Shown in pieces: positions 6,550 to 51,512 of a DNA stretch of 64,000 nucleotides. The stretch is from Maribacter algarum (ex Zhang et al. 2020) (GTDB lineage Bacteria; Bacteroidota; Bacteroidia; Flavobacteriales; Flavobacteriaceae). How positions within the stretch are numbered: position 1 is the first letter of the stretch; every line of letters begins with the position of its first letter. Position numbers and translations under genes: made by a program. The stretch is from NCBI RefSeq assembly GCF_005885635.1, contig NZ_VATY01000003.1, positions 600,507 through 664,506 of the forward strand, read 5' to 3'. The notes beneath the pieces were generated by a model. It did not search any database and had not been told where the DNA came from. It worked only from the letters and a program-made list of their open reading frames with translations.

Positions 6550-6623
6550 TGACCGCGAAGGGATTCAAACCCCCAACCCTCAGAGCCGAAATCTGATGCG
6601 CTATTCAGTTGCGCCACGCGGCC
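6550..6623 (-). tRNA. tRNA-Arg (anticodon TCG)
   Basis: Cloverleaf on the minus strand, 74 bases: acceptor GGCCGCG pairs with CGCGGTC (one G-T), discriminator A, no encoded CCA. The anticodon arm is TCAGA / TCTGA around loop TTTCGGC, so the anticodon is TCG, reading CGA and near cognates. The T arm has loop TTTGAAT. It lies 6 bases downstream of yqeY and has its own terminator. Confidence 0.93.
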
Positions 6624-43519: not shown

Positions 43520-44749
43520 TTATAATTCTTTTACAGAAAATTGCAGTTGTTTCAGGTCCTTCCAGTAATCAGGATATGATTTTGAGACAACCTCCGCATC
43601 ATTGACTATAATTGTAGTTTTCATGGCTAAAGGAGCAAAAGCCATAGCCATTCGGTGGTCATTATAGGTGTCAATAGCGACATCGGCAGTTATATTTTCG
43701 GTAGGTTCTAATGTCAACGCCTTATCTGTAACCGAAATACTGGCCCCTAGTTTCGACAATTCAATGTCCAAAGCTTCCAGACGATCTGTTTCTTTTATTT
43801 TAAGGGTATGCAGGCCCGTTAAATGACAACCAATTCCAAGTCCAAAACAAGTGACTGCAATAGTTTGCGCTATGTCAGGTGCATCAGAAAGCTCAAGGTT
43901 TAAGTTGCCGGGTTTCAGGTCAGCTGTTTTGCTCAAAATGATGGTATTTTCTTCAAAAACAGTATAAACTCCTAGTTTCTGATAAATTTCCGAAAGTACA
44001 CTATCACCTTGTAGGCTATTCCTTTTGTATGCTGATAATTTTATTACCGTACCCACGGCGGAAAGTGCCACAATACTATAAAAATAAGATGCGGAACTCC
44101 AATCAGATTCCACGACCAAACTTGTTGGTTCTACAGAAGTTGTTGGAGTTACTATAATCGTATTCCCGTCAAAGGAAGTTTCGACTCCAATCTCATTCAA
44201 AAGTGCCAGTGTCATTTTTATATATGGCACCGAAGTAATTTTACCAATCAAGTTTAATTCTAAGCCCTTTTCTAAACTCGGAGCGATTAGCAGTAGAGAC
44301 GAGATATATTGACTACTAATATCAGCGGGAAGACTCACCGAATGATTTTTAAGTTTCTTTCCTTTGATACGAATTGGTGGATACCCATCATTCTTCTCAT
44401 ATTCAATATCGGCACCTAAGTTTCTTAAAGCATCAACCAAAACTTTAACTGGCCTCTCGGTCATTCGCTGCGAACCTGTCAATACCACTTCTTTGCTCTC
44501 TTGTGAAGCAAAATAACCCGTAAGAAAACGCATGGCAGTACCTGCATGGTGAATATCGACAATACCTTTGGAAATTTTCAAACCTTTTTCCATTACCTCA
44601 GCATCATCAGAATTTGAGATGTTGCTTATGGTAACATTTGAATATAATGCCCGTAACAATAAGGAACGGTTAGATTCACTTTTAGAACCTGTAATTTGAA
44701 TAGCTGCTTTTAGAAGTTTGCTGGACGGGCCAGATAGGTATAAATTCAA
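43520..44749 (-). CDS. aroA: 3-phosphoshikimate 1-carboxyvinyltransferase (EPSP synthase)
   Basis: Shikimate-pathway enzyme transferring enolpyruvyl to shikimate-3-phosphate. At 409 residues it is slightly shorter than the E. coli enzyme. It has GSKSESNRSLLLRAL, the Arg-containing ERPVKVLVDALRNLGA, and KETDRLEALDIELSKLGA near the C terminus. The active-site loop reads HHAGTAMRFL, not the GNAGTAMRPL of classical class I enzymes. TTG start at 44747-44749. It supplies the precursor used by the Phe/Tyr operon at 47-51 kb but is not part of it. Confidence 0.95.
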   Translation of the reverse strand: MNLYLSGPSSKLLKAAIQITGSKSESNRSLLLRALYSNVTISNISNSDDAEVMEKGLKISKGIVDIHHAGTAMRFLTGYFASQESKEVVLTGSQRMTERPVKVLVDALRNLGADIEYEKNDGYPPIRIKGKKLKNHSVSLPADISSQYISSLLLIAPSLEKGLELNLIGKITSVPYIKMTLALLNEIGVETSFDGNTIIVTPTTSVEPTSLVVESDWSSASYFYSIVALSAVGTVIKLSAYKRNSLQGDSVLSEIYQKLGVYTVFEENTIILSKTADLKPGNLNLELSDAPDIAQTIAVTCFGLGIGCHLTGLHTLKIKETDRLEALDIELSKLGASISVTDKALTLEPTENITADVAIDTYNDHRMAMAFAPLAMKTTIIVNDAEVVSKSYPDYWKDLKQLQFSVKEL

Positions 44750-44842
44750 GATTGTGTTCTCTTTTGAAGGTTTCTAAATATCGGGAGTCTGCAAATCAAA
44801 ACAATCCAAAGGACCAACCGAAATTAAGGGGCAAAGATAACA

Positions 44843-45169
44843 CTATTTCAACTTTTTGTTATTGTGGTGCCGGTCGTGGTCACGCTTCGCTTTAAGGTCA
44901 AGTTTCTTATAAAAGGCTTCTTGAAGATCTACTCCGGTTTGATTTGCAAGACATAACACAACAAACAGAACATCAGCAAGTTCTTCACCTAAATCTTTAT
45001 TTTTGTCCGATTCTTTTTCACTTTGCTCACCGTATCTACGGGCAATAATACGAGCTACCTCTCCTACTTCTTCGGTAAGTTGAGCCATGTTGGTGAGCTC
45101 ATTGAAATAGCGAACTCCGTGTTCTTTAATCCAATTGTCTACAGCCTTTTGAGAATCGTGTATATCCAT
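44843..45169 (-). CDS. MazG-like nucleotide pyrophosphohydrolase
   Basis: Small all-alpha NTP pyrophosphohydrolase of 108 residues. Metal-binding acidic residues of the MazG fold are in LTEEVGEVARII (E-x-x-E) and DLGEELADVLFVVLCLAN (E-x-x-D). It probably removes non-standard nucleotides. It lies directly after dtd and rsgA, with no spacing, in one leftward group. Confidence 0.9.
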   Translation of the reverse strand: MDIHDSQKAVDNWIKEHGVRYFNELTNMAQLTEEVGEVARIIARRYGEQSEKESDKNKDLGEELADVLFVVLCLANQTGVDLQEAFYKKLDLKAKRDHDRHHNNKKLK

Positions 45170-45621
45170 TATTGCTTGTTTTTTGTGTCTATTATAATAG
45201 TAACAGGGCCATCATTCAATAAATCTACCTTCATATTCGCACCAAAAATACCGGTCCCAACATTCTTACCTAAATCCGCTTTAAGCTGCTTCACAAAGCT
45301 CTCGTACAGCGGTATAGAAACCTCCGGTTTTGCTGCTTTTAGATAAGAAGGGCGATTCCCTTTTTTGGTCGATGCATGCAAGGTAAACTGGCTCACTACA
45401 ATAGCATCTCCCTTTATTTCAAGAATCGATTTATTCATCACCCCCTCGTGGTCATTAAAAATACGGAGATTGGCGATTTTACGAGAAAGCCATTCTATAT
45501 CTTCTTTGGAGTCTTCATTTTCAATGCCCAAAAGAATAAGTAATCCTGTTTCGATTATTGAAGTGATTTTTCCTTCAACGGTAACACTCGCCCTAGAAAC
45601 TCTTTGAATTACCGCTCTCAC
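45169..45621 (-). CDS. dtd: D-aminoacyl-tRNA deacylase
   Basis: Cytosolic proofreading enzyme removing D-amino acids from tRNA. The 150 residues have MRAVIQRVSRASVTVEG at the start, the central SQFTLHASTKKGNRPSY (active-site SQFTL) and the C-terminal GP-motif NDGPVTIIIDTKN. GTG start overlapping the rsgA stop by 4 bases. Confidence 0.97.
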   Translation of the reverse strand: MRAVIQRVSRASVTVEGKITSIIETGLLILLGIENEDSKEDIEWLSRKIANLRIFNDHEGVMNKSILEIKGDAIVVSQFTLHASTKKGNRPSYLKAAKPEVSIPLYESFVKQLKADLGKNVGTGIFGANMKVDLLNDGPVTIIIDTKNKQ

Positions 45622-46571
45622 TTTTTCTCTCCGTATATGTCCATTCTATAATTCTCTTCTTCACCTGTAATCATTTGCACATAGCTTTTGTATCGACTCC
45701 ATGCCACCTCATCATTATCCAGAGCCTCTTTTACGGCACATTTAGGTTCATCTAAATGAAGGCAATTATTGAACTTGCAATTAATTTTCAATTTAAAGAA
45801 TTCTCGAAAGTAATCTCCGATTTCTTCTTTCTCCATGTCGACAATTCCGAAACCTTTGATCCCTGGCGTATCAATAATCCGGGCATCGAAACTCAAGTCA
45901 TACATTTCGGCGAAAGTGGTTGTATGTTGCCCTTGCAAATGCTGTTCGGAAATTTCCCTTGTTTTGAGTTCTAAGGTTTTCTCTAAGGCATTGACTAAAG
46001 TAGATTTTCCAGCACCCGAATGCCCCGCAAACATGCTCGTTTTTCCTATCATAAGCTCTTTAACCTTATCTACATTTTTTCCCGTTGTTGCCGATATTCC
46101 TATACATTCATAACCTATGCTTCGGTAAAGTGCAGCCAAATATTTTACCTCTAGTAATTCTTCTTCATCGTAGGTATCAACTTTATTAAAAAGTAGGATA
46201 ACAGGAATATCATAGGCTTCGGCAGTAGCTAGAAACCGATCAATAAAGACAGCATACGTCTTCGGATTATTTAATGTAACCAATAAAAAAACTCGGTCTA
46301 GATTTGCTGCTATAATATGTGTTTGCTTAGAGAGATTCACTGACTTACGGATAATATAATTCTTGCGTTCCTCAATTGCAGAAATTGTTCCGACAGTAGC
46401 ATCACCTAATTCTTCAATCTCAAATACCACAACATCGCCCACAGCAATTGGATTGGTACTTTTAATCCCTTGAATACGAAATTTCCCTTTAATACGACAT
46501 TCGTAGAACGTACCATCTTCGATTTTAACAGTGTACCAGCTTCCCGTTGATTTATAGACAACCCCTCGCAT
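45618..46571 (-). CDS. rsgA: Ribosome small subunit-dependent GTPase RsgA
   Basis: GTPase acting in late 30S maturation. The 317 residues show the N-terminal OB fold, the circularly permuted GTPase order with G4 NKVD first, then G1 GHSGAGKSTLVN, G3 DTPGIKGFG, and the zinc-binding C-terminal CKFNNCLHLDEPKCAV. First gene of the group rsgA-dtd-mazG-like. Confidence 0.97.
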   Translation of the reverse strand: MRGVVYKSTGSWYTVKIEDGTFYECRIKGKFRIQGIKSTNPIAVGDVVVFEIEELGDATVGTISAIEERKNYIIRKSVNLSKQTHIIAANLDRVFLLVTLNNPKTYAVFIDRFLATAEAYDIPVILLFNKVDTYDEEELLEVKYLAALYRSIGYECIGISATTGKNVDKVKELMIGKTSMFAGHSGAGKSTLVNALEKTLELKTREISEQHLQGQHTTTFAEMYDLSFDARIIDTPGIKGFGIVDMEKEEIGDYFREFFKLKINCKFNNCLHLDEPKCAVKEALDNDEVAWSRYKSYVQMITGEEENYRMDIYGEKK

Positions 46572-46734: not shown

Positions 46735-47178
46735 ATGAAGAAAATTGTACTTATTGCAAGCTTAGTTTTGCTTGTTAGCCTTGAAGTTAACGCACAACAA
46801 ATCAAAGTAGTCACTAGTGTAGAATCAATTGTGCCCAATGGTTTGGGCCGTTCACGTATTGTCGATGCCCAAGAGGAAAAGAATTTTGGTGAATATACTA
46901 CTACGCAAACCGAAGAGGACAACACAAGAAACAAATCAAAAAGAGGTGATATTCGAGTTAAGAATTTCGAGGAAACCAAGTTGCTTAATTTTTACAACAT
47001 TGCTGGAATCCGTTTTCAGAATATTGCCGCAAACGATGCGGTTATATCATCAAAATTAACTTCCATGATAAAAGATGGATGGGAACTCATATTTGTAACC
47101 AGCGGTGTTGAAGCGGATGCTGGGGGCGACGATGGACAAGGTATTTTTATTACTCGTTATATTTTTAAGAAAGATTGA
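46735..47178 (+). CDS. Secreted hypothetical protein
   Basis: Exported protein of 147 residues: signal 1-20 (VSLEVNAQQ), then a short domain with a conserved-looking KVVTSVESIVPNGLGRSRIV, a charged linker and a C-terminal WELIFVTSGVEADAGGDDGQ followed by a final strand ending YIFKKD. No family is recognised. It stands alone between rsgA (divergent) and the aromatic operon (convergent). Confidence 0.75.
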   Translation: MKKIVLIASLVLLVSLEVNAQQIKVVTSVESIVPNGLGRSRIVDAQEEKNFGEYTTTQTEEDNTRNKSKRGDIRVKNFEETKLLNFYNIAGIRFQNIAANDAVISSKLTSMIKDGWELIFVTSGVEADAGGDDGQGIFITRYIFKKD

Positions 47179-47258: not shown

Positions 47259-48341
47259 TTATGCTTTTACAATCTTATTCTGGTGGTTAATGGACTCTTG
47301 GTGAATCGCTTTAAACATTTTAAGTACAAACTCTTCGCTCAATCCTTTTGTTTCGCCTTCAAGAATCATCTTTCCTAAAATCTCATTCCAACGGTTGGAC
47401 TGTAATACTGCTACGTTTCGGGTTTTCTTTAATTTACCAATACTGTCTGCAACCTTCATTCGCTTACCCATAGTATCGATTAATTGATTGTCAATAACAT
47501 CAATTTGAGCTCTTAAACCACTCAATTGGCTGTTGTATTCTGCTTCTGGGTCTGATTCTTTTCTGATTTTCAAATCGTTCATAATCTGAACTAATCTATC
47601 CGGAGTTACTTGCTGCGCAGCATCACTCCAAGCATTATCAGGGTCGTGATGTGTTTCAATCATCAATCCGTCAAAATTCAAATCTAATGCAGTTTGCGAA
47701 ACATCAAAAATCATATCGCGCTTTCCAGTAATATGCGATGGGTCATTGATTAATGGCAAATCAGGGAATTTATTCTGAAACTCAATCGCCAATTGCCATT
47801 CTGGAATGTTTCTGTATTTCGACTTTTCGTAGGTTGAAAACCCTCTATGAATCGCTCCTAATTTCTTGATTCCAGCGGTATGCAAACGTTCGATTCCCCC
47901 TAACCAAAGCGCTAAATCAGGATTTACTGGGTTCTTTACCAAAACAATCTTGTCGGTACCAGCCAACGCATCAGCCAGTTCTTGCATGATAAACGGACTC
48001 ACCGTTGAGCGTGCACCAATCCACAACAAATCAATATCATGTTCTAAAGCTAGTTCTACATGAGCACGGTTCGCTACTTCTGTGGCCGTCTTTAAACCTG
48101 TTTCTGTTTTTACTTTTTGGAGCCATTTCAAACCTAAGGCGCCAACACCTTCAAAGTTTCCTGGTCGTGTTCTAGGCTTCCAGATACCTGCGCGGTAGTA
48201 ATTGACATCGGTATCTTTTAGGCTATGCGCAATTCCTAACACCTGTTCTTCGGTTTCAGCACTACATGGCCCTGCTATCACTAGTGGATGGTCTAAACCC
48301 ATATCATCCAACCATGTTCTCATTTCTTTTGTATTCTCCAT
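47259..48341 (-). CDS. DAHP synthase fused to type II chorismate mutase
   Basis: Bifunctional protein of 360 residues. The N-terminal part (about 1-260) is a type I-beta (KDO8P-synthase-like) DAHP synthase with PLVIAGPCSAET, KPRTRPGNFEGVG, LKTATEV and DPSHITGKRD; the C-terminal part (about 270-355) is an AroQ-type chorismate mutase (QLSGLRAQIDVIDNQLIDTMGKRMKVADSIGKLKK). The order synthase-then-mutase is known from Prevotella. It starts and commits the Phe/Tyr branch and may be feedback-controlled through the mutase domain. Last gene of the operon controlled by the leader at 51302. Confidence 0.95.
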   Translation of the reverse strand: MENTKEMRTWLDDMGLDHPLVIAGPCSAETEEQVLGIAHSLKDTDVNYYRAGIWKPRTRPGNFEGVGALGLKWLQKVKTETGLKTATEVANRAHVELALEHDIDLLWIGARSTVSPFIMQELADALAGTDKIVLVKNPVNPDLALWLGGIERLHTAGIKKLGAIHRGFSTYEKSKYRNIPEWQLAIEFQNKFPDLPLINDPSHITGKRDMIFDVSQTALDLNFDGLMIETHHDPDNAWSDAAQQVTPDRLVQIMNDLKIRKESDPEAEYNSQLSGLRAQIDVIDNQLIDTMGKRMKVADSIGKLKKTRNVAVLQSNRWNEILGKMILEGETKGLSEEFVLKMFKAIHQESINHQNKIVKA

Positions 48342-49201
48342 TACTTTTTGTTTAGTGGTATTCCGTTTAATATTTCTTTAATCTTATTCGTGTTATTCAT
48401 TTCATTATAAATGCCTTCAAAGTCGTTTTCTAAAAGCATTTGTTTGAATTCTTCCAAATTTTGAATATACTCCTCGAGTGTTTCTACAACATTCTTTTTA
48501 TTCTGTTCAAAAATAGGCGCCCACATTGCTGGTGAACTTTTTGCCAAACGCACGGTGCTTTCGAAACCAGACCCTGCCATATCAAAAATATCCCGTTCGT
48601 TTTTCTCTTTTTCAATTACTGTTTTCCCTAACATAAATGAACTGATATGCGACAAATGCGACACATAAGCGATATGCTTATCATGTGCCTCAGGATTCAT
48701 ATATCGAATTCGCATTCCCATCTTTTGGAACAACTCTAAGGCCCTTTCCTGCAATTTGAAAGCGGTCTTTTCTACCTCACAAATGATATTCGTCTTTCCT
48801 TCGTACAAACCTTCAATAGCTGCCGACGGGCCGGAAAATTCCGTACCTGCAATTGGGTGTGCTGCTAAATAATTTCTTCGCTTCGGATGATTATCCAACT
48901 GTTTGCAAATCAATTGTTTTGTAGAACCGCCGTCAAAAACGACACAATCATCATTTACAGCATCCAATATTTTGGGAAGCTCTGTTACCAAAACATCTAC
49001 AGGAATAGATACAATCACCATATCGGCTAATCCTAAATCTTCATAGTTTGATTTCACATCAATAAGATTCAAAGTAAAAGCTTCTTCTAAATGGGCATCG
49101 TTGGCATCAATGCCATAAATCTTAGATTCCGGCATAATGCGTTTAATGTCCTTCGCGAAAGACCCTCCTATTAATCCAATACCGATTATAAAAACGTTCA
49201 T
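48341..49201 (-). CDS. tyrA: Prephenate dehydrogenase
   Basis: NAD-dependent enzyme turning prephenate into 4-hydroxyphenylpyruvate for tyrosine. The 286 residues start with the Rossmann motif VFIIGIGLIGGSFAKDI, and have AAHPIAGTEFSGP and YVSHLSHISSFMLG with the catalytic His. No ACT domain. It overlaps the DAHP synthase start by one base. Confidence 0.94.
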   Translation of the reverse strand: MNVFIIGIGLIGGSFAKDIKRIMPESKIYGIDANDAHLEEAFTLNLIDVKSNYEDLGLADMVIVSIPVDVLVTELPKILDAVNDDCVVFDGGSTKQLICKQLDNHPKRRNYLAAHPIAGTEFSGPSAAIEGLYEGKTNIICEVEKTAFKLQERALELFQKMGMRIRYMNPEAHDKHIAYVSHLSHISSFMLGKTVIEKEKNERDIFDMAGSGFESTVRLAKSSPAMWAPIFEQNKKNVVETLEEYIQNLEEFKQMLLENDFEGIYNEMNNTNKIKEILNGIPLNKK

Positions 49202-49202
49202 A

Positions 49203-50348
49203 TCAAAACCTGTCTATTGCTTCTTGAATCTTGTCCTCGGGCACACATAAGGAAAATCGTATATATCCTTCTCCATTGCTTCCGAAAATGGTTCCCGGCG
49301 TAATAAAAATATTTTTGTCATACAGAATATCGTCAATAAACTTTTCTGCGGATGGCACACCGTAAGGTAACTTTGCCCAAATGAACATTCCCACGGAAGT
49401 GGAATCATAAGTACATCCTAATTTTTTCACCAATTGCAACATCAACTCCTTTCGTCCTGAATAGACCTTGTTCAAATTGTCAAACCAATCTTGAGTACTT
49501 CCTAAAGCCGCAATAGCCCCTTTTTGAATTCCGTAGAACATTCCGGAATCCATATTGCTTTTTACTTTCAGAATGGACTTCAAGTTTTTTTCATTCCCAA
49601 GAACCATCCCCACGCGCCATCCGGCCATGTTAAAAGTTTTACTCAGGGAATTCAGTTCTAAAGCAACATCCTTAGCACCATTTATGTTGAGAATGCTTGT
49701 CGGATTGTCATTCAAAACAAAACTGTATGGATTATCATTGATTAATAGGATATTATTCCGTTGTGCAAAAGCTATTAATTTTTCAAACTGCAATTTAGTA
49801 GCCTTTGCCCCTGTTGGCATATGTGGATAGCTCGTCCACATGAGTTTTACTTTGGATAAATCTTCTTTCCCTAACTGCTCCAAATCAGGAAACCAATCTT
49901 TATCTTCAACCAAATCGTAATACTGCGGAACGGCACCAACTAATTTGCTCACAGCGGTATACGTGGGATAACCTGGATTCGGAATCAACACCTCATCTCC
50001 TTCATTCAAAAAAGCCATGCTAATATGCATGATACCTTCTTTGGAACCCATCAACGGAAGAATTTCGGTTGTAGCATCTGCTTCGACGCCAAATTTTGAT
50101 GCATAGAATTTCGCAATCGCTTCCCGTAATTCGGGCAAACCTTGGTAGCTCTGATATTGATGTGCCCCGGAATCATTAACTGCATTCTGAATTGTTTTAA
50201 TCACGGCTGTAGATGGGACTAAATCAGGACTCCCAATACCCATATTGATTATCGGTTTTCCATCGGCCATAAGTCCGCGTACTTCTCGTAACTTTTTAGA
50301 GAAGTAGTATTCCTGAACCGTTTCAAGTCTATCAGCCGTCTGTATCAT
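49203..50348 (-). CDS. PLP-dependent aminotransferase (aromatic pathway)
   Basis: Class I/II aminotransferase of 381 residues. It has PIINMGIGSPDLVPS, the cofactor motif PNPGYPTYTAV, NDNPYSFV, the Schiff-base Lys in LNSLSKTFNMAGWRVGM and the phosphate-binding Arg in GYIRFSL. Its place between pheA and tyrA makes the last transamination of phenylpyruvate and hydroxyphenylpyruvate, or of prephenate, its likely task. It overlaps pheA by 4 bases. Confidence 0.92.
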   Translation of the reverse strand: MIQTADRLETVQEYYFSKKLREVRGLMADGKPIINMGIGSPDLVPSTAVIKTIQNAVNDSGAHQYQSYQGLPELREAIAKFYASKFGVEADATTEILPLMGSKEGIMHISMAFLNEGDEVLIPNPGYPTYTAVSKLVGAVPQYYDLVEDKDWFPDLEQLGKEDLSKVKLMWTSYPHMPTGAKATKLQFEKLIAFAQRNNILLINDNPYSFVLNDNPTSILNINGAKDVALELNSLSKTFNMAGWRVGMVLGNEKNLKSILKVKSNMDSGMFYGIQKGAIAALGSTQDWFDNLNKVYSGRKELMLQLVKKLGCTYDSTSVGMFIWAKLPYGVPSAEKFIDDILYDKNIFITPGTIFGSNGEGYIRFSLCVPEDKIQEAIDRF

Positions 50349-51172
50349 TCTCTGGCATTTTTATATTCACCCAATACTTTAAAATCTTCTGACATGATGT
50401 TCAACAGCGCTTTTGCTTTTTTAAAATTGGCATAACCTTCAAAAGTCACATCAACAAAAAAGGCATATTTCCAAGGGGTCTCAATAATAGGAAGACTTTG
50501 AATTTTCGTCAAGTTCAAATTGCAATCACTCATAACATTAAGCATAGCGGCCAAACTACCGCGTTTGTGGTCAGTTATAAAACGTACGGATGCTTTGTTA
50601 ATAACCTCCTTTGGAAGCTCCTTGTTTTTAGTTTTTACAATGATAAATCGAGTTGAATTATTCTTAATCGTCTGTATGTCGGATGCTACGATGTCCAAAT
50701 CATATAACTCGGCTGCAACCTTAGGCGCAATTGCCGCAACATTTTTCAAACCATGCTTTTGAATTTGCTTGGCAGTCTCAGCGGTATCTACATCTTCAAC
50801 CATTTTTATATGCGGTTTGGTCTTTAGATATTCACGACATTGTAAAAGTGCCATAGGGTGCGAACGAACCTCTTCTATATCTTGTAAATCCTGACCCTTA
50901 TATACCATGAGATGATGATGGATATTCAGATAATGTTCACCGATAATATGCAAACCTTTGTCATATACAAGGGCATAATTGGGAATTATGGAGCCAGCAA
51001 TAGAATTTTCAATTGCCATTATTCCCTTATCAGCCGTGCCATCCAACAATTGATCTACCAAGCCATGAAATGATAAACATTCTACCAATTCAATGTTATC
51101 CCCATAATAGTCCTTTGCCACTTGGTGGTGGTTTGAACCTTGAATTCCTTGTATGGCTACTTTCAATTTCAT
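50345..51172 (-). CDS. pheA: Prephenate dehydratase
   Basis: Converts prephenate to phenylpyruvate. The 275 residues start KVAIQGIQGSNHHQVA, have the catalytic Thr-Arg-Phe motif in NNSTRFIIVKTK (about 176), and a C-terminal ACT domain (about 198-272). In the ACT domain the usual Phe-binding ESRP is QSLP (LTKIQSLPII), and GALV is GSLA. No chorismate mutase domain; that activity is on the DAHP synthase. First structural gene after the attenuator. Confidence 0.96.
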   Translation of the reverse strand: MKLKVAIQGIQGSNHHQVAKDYYGDNIELVECLSFHGLVDQLLDGTADKGIMAIENSIAGSIIPNYALVYDKGLHIIGEHYLNIHHHLMVYKGQDLQDIEEVRSHPMALLQCREYLKTKPHIKMVEDVDTAETAKQIQKHGLKNVAAIAPKVAAELYDLDIVASDIQTIKNNSTRFIIVKTKNKELPKEVINKASVRFITDHKRGSLAAMLNVMSDCNLNLTKIQSLPIIETPWKYAFFVDVTFEGYANFKKAKALLNIMSEDFKVLGEYKNARE

Positions 51173-51202: not shown

Positions 51203-51248
51203 ACCCTGAAATAAATTCAGGGTTCTCAAATTCAGAGAATTTGAGAAC
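51203..51248. repeat. Two adjoining perfect palindromes before pheA
   Basis: ACCCTGAA-ATAAA-TTCAGGGT (51203-51223, 8-base stem) and GTTCTCAAATTC-AGA-GAATTTGAGAAC (51222-51248, 12-base stem) share two bases. They lie between the attenuator terminator and the pheA start and would form strong hairpins in the 5' end of the read-through mRNA. The first resembles a dispersed repeat of Flavobacteriia. Confidence 0.75.
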
Positions 51249-51276
51249 AAAAAAAGTCCTGCTTTTCGCAGGACTT
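51249..51276 (-). terminator. Attenuator terminator of the Phe/Tyr operon
   Basis: Read leftwards: AAGTCCTGC-GAAAA-GCAGGACTT with a perfect 9-base stem, then a run of T. It sits between the leader peptide and pheA, so it can only act as a conditional stop. The left arm AGTCCTG is also complementary to CAGGACT inside the leader gene (51309-51315). Confidence 0.92.
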
Positions 51277-51301
51277 CTATATTATATCTAACTTGAATAT
51301 A

Positions 51302-51373
51302 CTATAACAGTCCTGTACCTCTCTTAAAAAAGAAGTAAAAAAAGAATCCGTTATAGAAATATTGCTTAGTCAT
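51302..51373 (-). CDS. Phe/Tyr-rich leader peptide of the aromatic operon
   Basis: A 23-codon reading frame between the M20 peptidase gene and pheA encodes MTKQYFYNGFFFYFFFKR-GTGLL: seven Phe and three Tyr, with the run FFFYFFF at codons 10-16. Such a composition cannot be chance in front of a phenylalanine and tyrosine operon. Codons 6-9 (CTATAACGG, 51348-51356) can pair with the end of the gene (CTGTTATAG, 51302-51310); codons 20-22 (CAGGACT) can pair with the terminator arm. This gives the 1:2, 2:3 and 3:4 pairs of a classical ribosome-mediated attenuator: stalling at Phe/Tyr codons would favour 2:3 and read-through. Confidence 0.93.
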   Translation of the reverse strand: MTKQYFYNGFFFYFFFKRGTGLL

Positions 51374-51512
51374 TATACACTTAAACTGCGACTAATGTAT
51401 GAATTAAATTTAAAAATCTCCTTTTTCATCGATTTTTTTTCGATTTGATTACATTTTGTTAAAATATACCGTTGAATCATATTATCTGCGCCACAAGTAT
51501 AGAATTTGGGAG

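What the first reader, a model, noticed from the sequence alone, without database searches (positions are those of the whole stretch)
51249..51373. Complete Phe/Tyr ribosome-mediated attenuator before the aromatic operon
Seen: a 23-codon frame with 7 Phe and 3 Tyr (FFFYFFF at codons 10-16), then a perfect 9-base terminator hairpin with a T run, then pheA-aminotransferase-tyrA-DAHP synthase/mutase. Three mutually exclusive pairs can be drawn: 1:2 CTATAACGG (51348-51356) with CTGTTATAG (51302-51310); 2:3 CAGGACT (51309-51315) with AGTCCTG (51269-51275); 3:4 the terminator. Segments 1 and 2 both lie inside the leader gene, as in trp and phe leaders of enteric bacteria. Known: this logic is classical in Proteobacteria. 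Inference: one leader senses both Phe and Tyr charging, and controls the whole branch from DAHP synthase. I do not know a described example in Flavobacteriia.
Basis: partly seen in the sequence, partly recalled or inferred. Interest (0 to 1): 0.85.

Follow-up and report, generated by a model that had tools for sequence, protein, structure and literature searches.

The report
Aromatic amino-acid leader-peptide attenuator in Bacteroidia
A short gene packed with phenylalanine and tyrosine codons, followed by an RNA stop signal, sits before the operon that makes these amino acids and very probably switches it on when they run short; the same arrangement recurs in nearly all relatives examined, and a published study appears to have noticed it in outline.

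Summary
It is not chance: of 177 distinct family upstream regions, 176 have leader, terminator and 2:3 complementarity within 400 nt, and the last has its element 457 nt upstream; 0 of 3540 shuffles have leader plus terminator. The three stems covary. Folding favours the antiterminator for stalls at all seven codons tested and the terminator with the ribosome at the stop. Selection looks amino-acid-like in Phe codons 6, 10, 12 and RNA-like in codon 20, inside segment 2. Best reading: ribosome-mediated attenuation by Phe and Tyr charging. 110 of 177 leaders also carry Trp; in this genus 1 of 11. The element occurs in other families of the class (18 of 45 loci) and in 0 of 28 loci of other classes. 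It is ordinary in kind, and PMC9723704 (2021) already reported a structured 5' element upstream of pheA conserved in Flavobacteriaceae. The starvation response is untested.

The parts
51392..51399 (-). likely -7 promoter box TACATTAG
   Evidence: TAnnTTAG lies within 60 nt upstream of the leader ATG in 87 of 99 family loci; resemblance to the Bacteroidota promoter type is recalled, not tested
51302..51373 (-). leader ORF MTKQYFYNGFFFYFFFKRGTGLL* (7 Phe, 3 Tyr)
   Evidence: a leader of this kind in 99 of 99 usable family loci and in the 80 of 80 closest named loci
51348..51356 (-). segment 1 (CTATAACGG), last base of codon 6 to second base of codon 9
   Evidence: pairs with 51302-51310; 91.8% of cells paired in 64 sequences, 34 cells with changes on both sides
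51302..51315 (-). segment 2 (CAGGACTGTTATAG), end of the leader ORF
   Evidence: CAGGACT pairs with segment 3, 94.6% of cells paired, 5 of 7 pairs with changes on both sides; CTGTTATAG pairs with segment 1
51268..51276 (-). segment 3, 5' arm of terminator
51254..51262 (-). segment 4, 3' arm of terminator
   Evidence: 6 of 9 pairs with changes on both sides, 94.4% of cells paired
51249..51255 (-). terminator T run
   Evidence: hairpin with T run in 99 of 99 usable family loci
50345..51172 (-). pheA, prephenate dehydratase
   Evidence: PF00800 E 3.1e-58, over cut-off; NCBIfam prephenate dehydratase models match below their cut-offs
49203..50348 (-). PLP-dependent aminotransferase, probably aromatic
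   Evidence: 69 NCBIfam models match, none of the 25 shown over its cut-off; substrate inferred from context
48341..49201 (-). tyrA, prephenate dehydrogenase
   Evidence: NF006307 394.7 bits, over cut-off 295
47259..48341 (-). DAHP synthase fused to chorismate mutase
   Evidence: NF009239 and chorismate mutase models match below their cut-offs

Best explanation
It is a classical ribosome-mediated transcription attenuator. Shown from sequence: a conserved leader ORF rich in Phe/Tyr codons, a terminator, and conserved, covarying alternative stems. Inferred: transcription starts just upstream of the leader and the leading ribosome translates it. When Phe-tRNA or Tyr-tRNA is scarce the ribosome stalls at codons 5-16, keeps segment 1 from pairing, leaves segment 2 free, and segment 2 pairs with segment 3 (18-bp interrupted antiterminator) before segment 4 is made, so RNA polymerase reads into pheA-aminotransferase-tyrA-DAHP synthase. 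When charging is sufficient the ribosome reaches the stop codon, which lies in segment 2, and the 3:4 terminator forms. Without translation, 1:2 forms and the terminator also forms. In most relatives a Trp codon would add Trp sensing; this genus has mostly replaced it.
For: Leader, terminator and 2:3 complementarity in 176 of 177 distinct family upstreams, 0 of 3540 shuffles with leader plus terminator. Covariation above the shuffles in all three stems: 0 of 500 shuffles as high on 3 of 5 measures for 1:2, 5 of 5 for 2:3, 4 of 5 for 3:4; every slid version is lower in pairing and covariation score. Swapping segments between 98 loci lowers complementarity: 2:3 17.9 to 15.5, 1:2 16.9 to 13.6, 0 of 500 swaps as good. 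Folding: up to the end of segment 3 the best structure contains the antiterminator for a stall at each of the 7 codons tested (total -15.4 to -23.5 kcal/mol, the larger values with a further hairpin); with the ribosome at the stop, the terminator (-17.0); without ribosome, 1:2 plus terminator (-41.0). Codon-position signature in 93 distinct 23-codon leaders: codons 6, 10, 12 vary chiefly T/C at base 3, codon 20 varies at bases 1 and 2 with base 3 almost fixed. The operon is the cognate pathway. The covariance model finds one strong copy in this genome, 145 bits against 39.9 for the next, with 150 of 5184 first-look candidates scored.
Against: No experiment. With segment 4 present the terminator is again the most stable fold even for a stall at codon 10, so the switch must be kinetic. 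Synonymous recoding shows only moderate per-locus excess: 2:3 p<=0.05 in 41 of 98 loci, 1:2 in 33 of 98; loci are related, so these are not independent. For 1:2, 97 of 500 shuffles reach the observed number of pairs with a change on both sides, and in 31 of 99 loci the best helix found starts in or near the Phe run rather than at segment 1. In 4 of 99 loci the best 2:3 helix found is an A/T-rich one, not segment 2 (L039, L057, L059, L066). In L009, L072, L075, L079 and L094 the leader ends at or just before segment 2, and also in L066. Base 3 is also nearly fixed in Phe codons 14 and 15, so the coding signature is not uniform. Coupling of ribosome and polymerase in Bacteroidota was not examined.
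Confidence: 0.91

Rival explanations
1. The leader peptide itself is the active part: a nascent chain that arrests the ribosome in response to a free aromatic amino acid, or a small protein acting in trans; the hairpin is a plain terminator.
For: The peptide is strongly conserved.
Against: Its C-terminal end differs between clades (GLL/GLF, NETLYV, DCAMVI) while complementarity to the terminator arm is kept; codon 20 varies in amino acid but hardly in third base; some loci stop early and lose the C-terminal residues but keep the RNA segment (L009 and L066 in the alignment).
Confidence: 0.04
2. A riboswitch, T-box or protein-bound RNA that happens to contain a short ORF controls the terminator.
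For: There is a terminator/antiterminator pair, which such systems also have.
Against: No Rfam family reaches its gathering score in this region; most of the RNA upstream of the terminator is the ORF, whose Phe/Tyr codons are conserved at the amino-acid level.
Confidence: 0.03
3. The leader senses translation speed in general rather than aromatic amino acids, or is a constitutive partial terminator.
For: No induction data were available.
Against: All 177 family leaders examined have Phe and Tyr codons; the own genome has a His-rich leader before hisG and a Trp-rich one before trpE, so the residue follows the pathway.
Confidence: 0.02

Closest known systems
Enterobacterial pheA attenuator (Phe_leader, Rfam RF01859)
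   Same: Phe-rich leader, terminator and alternative antiterminator before pheA (recalled); sub-threshold similarity 22.3 bits, E 0.14
   Different: Below the family's gathering score of 55; here Tyr (and in 110 of 177 family leaders Trp) codons are included and the operon covers aminotransferase, tyrA and DAHP synthase; that the enteric leader is Phe-only is recalled
Structured 5' element upstream of pheA in Flavobacterium psychrophilum (PMC9723704, 2021)
   Same: Same gene and bacterial family, reported as present in other genera and without Rfam match; leader-peptide attenuation suggested for amino-acid operons (passages and the whole of section 19 read)
   Different: The passages I read give no leader sequence, stems or amino-acid specificity for pheA; its Table S7 and appendix were not available to me, so identity of the two elements is likely but not checked
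trp, his, thr and ilv leader-peptide attenuators of Proteobacteria (recalled)
   Same: Four-segment logic with a leader gene carrying the regulatory codons
   Different: Other amino acids; sensing of more than one amino acid is known there for thr and ilv (recalled)

Membership tests
Ribosome-mediated leader-peptide attenuator | short leader ORF with codons of the amino acids made by the operon | tested here: met
Ribosome-mediated leader-peptide attenuator | intrinsic terminator between leader and first gene | tested here: met
   99 of 99 usable family loci; covariation
Ribosome-mediated leader-peptide attenuator | antiterminator that excludes the terminator and includes the end of the leader ORF | tested here: met
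   G-rich segment 2 is the best partner in 95 of 99 loci
Ribosome-mediated leader-peptide attenuator | 1:2 hairpin that sequesters segment 2 when the leader is not blocked | tested here: met
   paired and covarying in clade A and by swap test; weaker case than 2:3 and 3:4, best helix starts elsewhere in 31 of 99 loci
Ribosome-mediated leader-peptide attenuator | leader is translated | tested here: inconclusive
   amino-acid level conservation and in-frame length changes in the Phe run; no ribosome profiling
Ribosome-mediated leader-peptide attenuator | readthrough rises on starvation for the cognate amino acid | not testable with these tools
   needs RNA or reporter assay
Rfam Phe_leader RF01859 | score at or above gathering threshold | tested here: not met
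   22.3 against 55 bits
T-box or riboswitch | match to a described family at gathering score | tested here: not met
   the only such match in the whole window is a tRNA at 6550-6623

The most novel reading that the evidence does not exclude
One leader peptide, dating to the early history of class Bacteroidia, reads the charging of all three aromatic tRNAs (Phe, Tyr, Trp) and gates the whole branch from DAHP synthase down; lineages then tune which amino acids count by swapping single leader codons, with the 1:2 stem re-paired each time (for example Trp TGG facing C, Tyr TAT facing A or G).
Probability: 0.5. Interest if true: 0.6.

Novelty: new member of a known kind. Interest (0 to 1): 0.45.

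Why it matters
Leader-peptide attenuation is best documented in Proteobacteria, with cases in Actinobacteria and Firmicutes (passages of PMC2965389). An element found in nearly all Flavobacteriaceae examined and part of the class, with covarying stems, gives a directly testable case in a phylum with unusual promoters and translation starts (stated in PMC9723704), and bears on whether RNA polymerase and ribosome are coupled there: without coupling this element could not work. It also offers natural experiments in sensor specificity, since the Trp codon differs between relatives. No Rfam model reached threshold on this copy.

Tried and rejected
Peptide as effector, riboswitch/T-box and general translation sensor: see rivals. 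A link to a known Rfam family: only sub-threshold matches, several of them unrelated small RNAs of similar score. A second copy of the element in this genome: the next best match has 39.9 bits, within the 36-42 bits that matches elsewhere reach in relatives (only 150 of 5184 first-look candidates of this genome were scored). Use of the covariance model beyond clade A: held-out clade B and some loci of other families score about 40-61 bits and others 28-39, so for distant loci I rely on leader content. The first scan left minus-strand loci in the wrong orientation; its misses are void and one search replaces it. My notebook entry after says 97 loci; the right number is 99 usable loci (L002-L102 without L012, cut off inside pheA, and L014, a repeat of L013). 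An Ile/Leu/Val leader before ilvD: none evident.

Full report
Observation. On the minus strand, 51373-51302 reads MTKQYFYNGFFFYFFFKRGTGLL*, with 7 Phe and 3 Tyr. A 9-bp hairpin (51276-51268 with 51262-51254) runs into seven T (51255-51249). The start codon of pheA follows after 76 nt. The four genes pheA, aminotransferase, tyrA and DAHP synthase/chorismate mutase overlap or are 1 nt apart. The leader folds 5.4 standard deviations better than shuffles.

Survey. A search with the window's pheA found matches in 12 of 14 genomes of the genus and 278 of 299 genomes of the family (the family is taken to be Flavobacteriaceae from the record titles). I examined the upstream DNA of 99 usable loci from these: 99 of 99 have an ATG leader dense in Phe, Tyr and often Trp, and 99 of 99 a hairpin with T run after it. 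Dropped: L012 (cut inside pheA), L014 (repeat of L013), L001 (repeat of the window). These loci come from the better-scoring matches that one search lists; the more divergent pheA genes of the family were barely sampled (L129, L146-L148: 4 of 4 have the element). The 80 closest relatives with record titles (the best 80 of 558, so biased to close kin such as Maribacter, Zobellia, Eudoraea, Muriicola, Flagellimonas) show the pair in 80 of 80. Pooled, repeats removed, there are 177 distinct upstream regions (99 + 17 + 4 + 57). Within 400 nt, 176 have a leader with at least 7 of 10 residues F/Y/W, a terminator and 2:3 complementarity; the exception L056 has its element 457 nt upstream. Of 3540 dinucleotide shuffles, 13 had such a leader and none leader plus terminator. 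Among 636 tiles of the window on both strands, 4 had such a leader and only the two tiles of this locus also a terminator.

Structure. On an alignment of 64 clade-A sequences, stem 1:2 is paired in 91.8% of cells with 34 cells changed on both sides (shuffle mean 18.9); but 97 of 500 shuffles reach its 3 pairs with a change on both sides and 47 its 13 further pair types. Stem 2:3: 94.6% paired (shuffle mean 93.4), 5 of 7 pairs with changes on both sides against 1.2 in shuffles. Stem 3:4: 94.4%, 6 of 9 pairs, 28 cells against 5.0. Sliding a partner by 1-3 columns drops pairing to 7.5-58.3%. Exchanging segments between 98 distinct loci lowers complementarity for both 2:3 and 1:2, 0 of 500 exchanges as good, also within clade A alone (79 loci). 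Relatedness inflates all these controls. Clades differ in sequence but keep the logic, for example CGGGACT with AGTCCCG in clade A and CGAGAC with GTCTCG in clade B. In the window CAGGACT/AGTCCTG/CAGGACT carries the same substitution in segments 2, 3 and 4 relative to the clade-A consensus.

Two kinds of selection. In 93 distinct 23-codon leaders, codons 6, 10 and 12 are Phe (93, 87 and 93 of 93) with T/C variation at base 3, as expected of a coding sequence. Codon 20, at the start of segment 2, is the reverse: chiefly Thr, Ala, Met or Lys, with base 3 nearly always G. So amino acids are conserved where a ribosome should stall and RNA bases where pairing is needed. The picture is not uniform: Phe codons 14 and 15 are nearly fixed at base 3 too, possibly because they pair in the 1:2 hairpin. 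Synonymous recoding of whole leaders gives lower complementarity on average (2:3 13.9 against 18.4; 1:2 13.7 against 18.1), at p<=0.05 in 41 and 33 of 98 loci; the other loci are individually inconclusive.

Mechanism. Folding the RNA left free by a ribosome stalled at codons 5, 7, 10, 12, 13, 14 or 16 (3' edge taken as 13 nt past the first base of the A-site codon, my assumption), up to the end of segment 3, gives the antiterminator each time; with the ribosome on the stop codon the terminator forms. Once segment 4 is present the terminator is more stable even with a stall at codon 10, so the decision must be made during transcription. Tyr and Phe codons lie in the same window, so both should count. 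Charging, stalling and readthrough are inferred.

Trp. All 177 leaders have Phe and Tyr; 110 have Trp; in this genus 1 of 11. Trp is codon 7 in 53 of the 93 distinct 23-codon leaders; among the 99 surveyed loci 63 have Trp, 33 of them first at codon 7. In the 23-codon leaders codon 7 lies in segment 1, and for its third base the pair takes the forms G-C, U-G, U-A, G-U and C-G, with 15 of 64 sequences unpaired there. Since DAHP synthase feeds all three aromatic amino acids, Trp sensing would make sense.

Range. Outside the family but in the class I examined 45 loci: 22 with such a leader, 20 of them with terminator, 18 with 2:3 complementarity of 14 or more. One of the 22 (L138, no terminator) is probably chance. 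No leader plus terminator was found in 9 loci of one other family of the order (f4, eight of them with a pheA only 30-34% identical), 2 of a small-genome family (f14), 5 of f24 and 2 of 3 of f27 in the class. In 28 loci of other classes of the phylum: 0, two of them without any ORF to score. In each case only part of the matches was fetched: 30 of 47 listed places, and 28 of the 76 matching genomes of other classes.

Known or not. Rfam: no family reaches threshold in this region; Phe_leader 22.3 against 55 bits. Ten paper searches were made, nine of them on attenuation or leader peptides with Bacteroidetes, Flavobacteria or Phe/Tyr. They gave one paper to the point: PMC9723704 (passages and all of section 19 read), which reports strong clues for leader-peptide attenuation upstream of amino-acid operons in F. 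psychrophilum and a structured element upstream of pheA present in other genera. PMC4833913 and PMC1262725 (passages) did not describe such a case in the passages seen. From memory, Vitreschak et al. 2004 mention attenuators in Bacteroidetes/Chlorobi; that paper and Lopatovskaya et al. 2010 are not held. [quoted passage not shown]

Verdict. A real, well-supported attenuator of a known kind. The stems, covariation, aromatic codon make-up and range given here go beyond the passages of the earlier paper that I read, but the phenomenon does not. Interest 0.45.

Noticed in passing
L259 (own genome, C12), minus strand about 2270-2150: His leader MRNKNTHHHLVTGCQAR* and hairpin AAACCCGTTTGAGCAATCAAGCGGGTTT directly before hisG: a second attenuator of the same design.
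   Followed up: partly
L260 (own genome, C14) about 1309-1440: Trp leader with WWW (MISIFGPMKKRNRNTWWWNNSRQIS*, with a second in-frame ATG) and a hairpin AAGGCTTGTC-ATCAC-GACAAGCCTT before trpE, with only a weak T run.
   Followed up: partly
L266 (own genome, C14) 549-638: Thr-rich small ORF MLDMRFDIATNFSITNGFTYTTAATTPMG* just upstream of the probable aspartokinase/homoserine dehydrogenase gene, a possible Thr/Ile leader.
   Followed up: no
window 51203-51248: Between terminator and pheA two further perfect hairpins (12 bp and 8 bp). A CTGAATTTATTTCAG hairpin also occurs there in L007 and L045, while many relatives have only a short spacer; it looks like an inserted dispersed repeat.
   Followed up: partly
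L056, about 337 nt between terminator and pheA: The attenuator is separated from pheA by an unusually long spacer.
   Followed up: no
window 43520-46571: Downstream of the operon lie rsgA, D-aminoacyl-tRNA deacylase, a MazG-like protein and aroA, after a small ORF on the opposite strand (46735-47178); aroA may belong to the same regulatory neighbourhood in other species.
   Followed up: no
L127 and L128, upstream of pheA: In one other family of the order the leader is eroded (MNRLENTFNSFYFIYDR, 5 of 10 aromatic) but the terminator remains and the covariance model still scores 44-45 bits.
   Followed up: no
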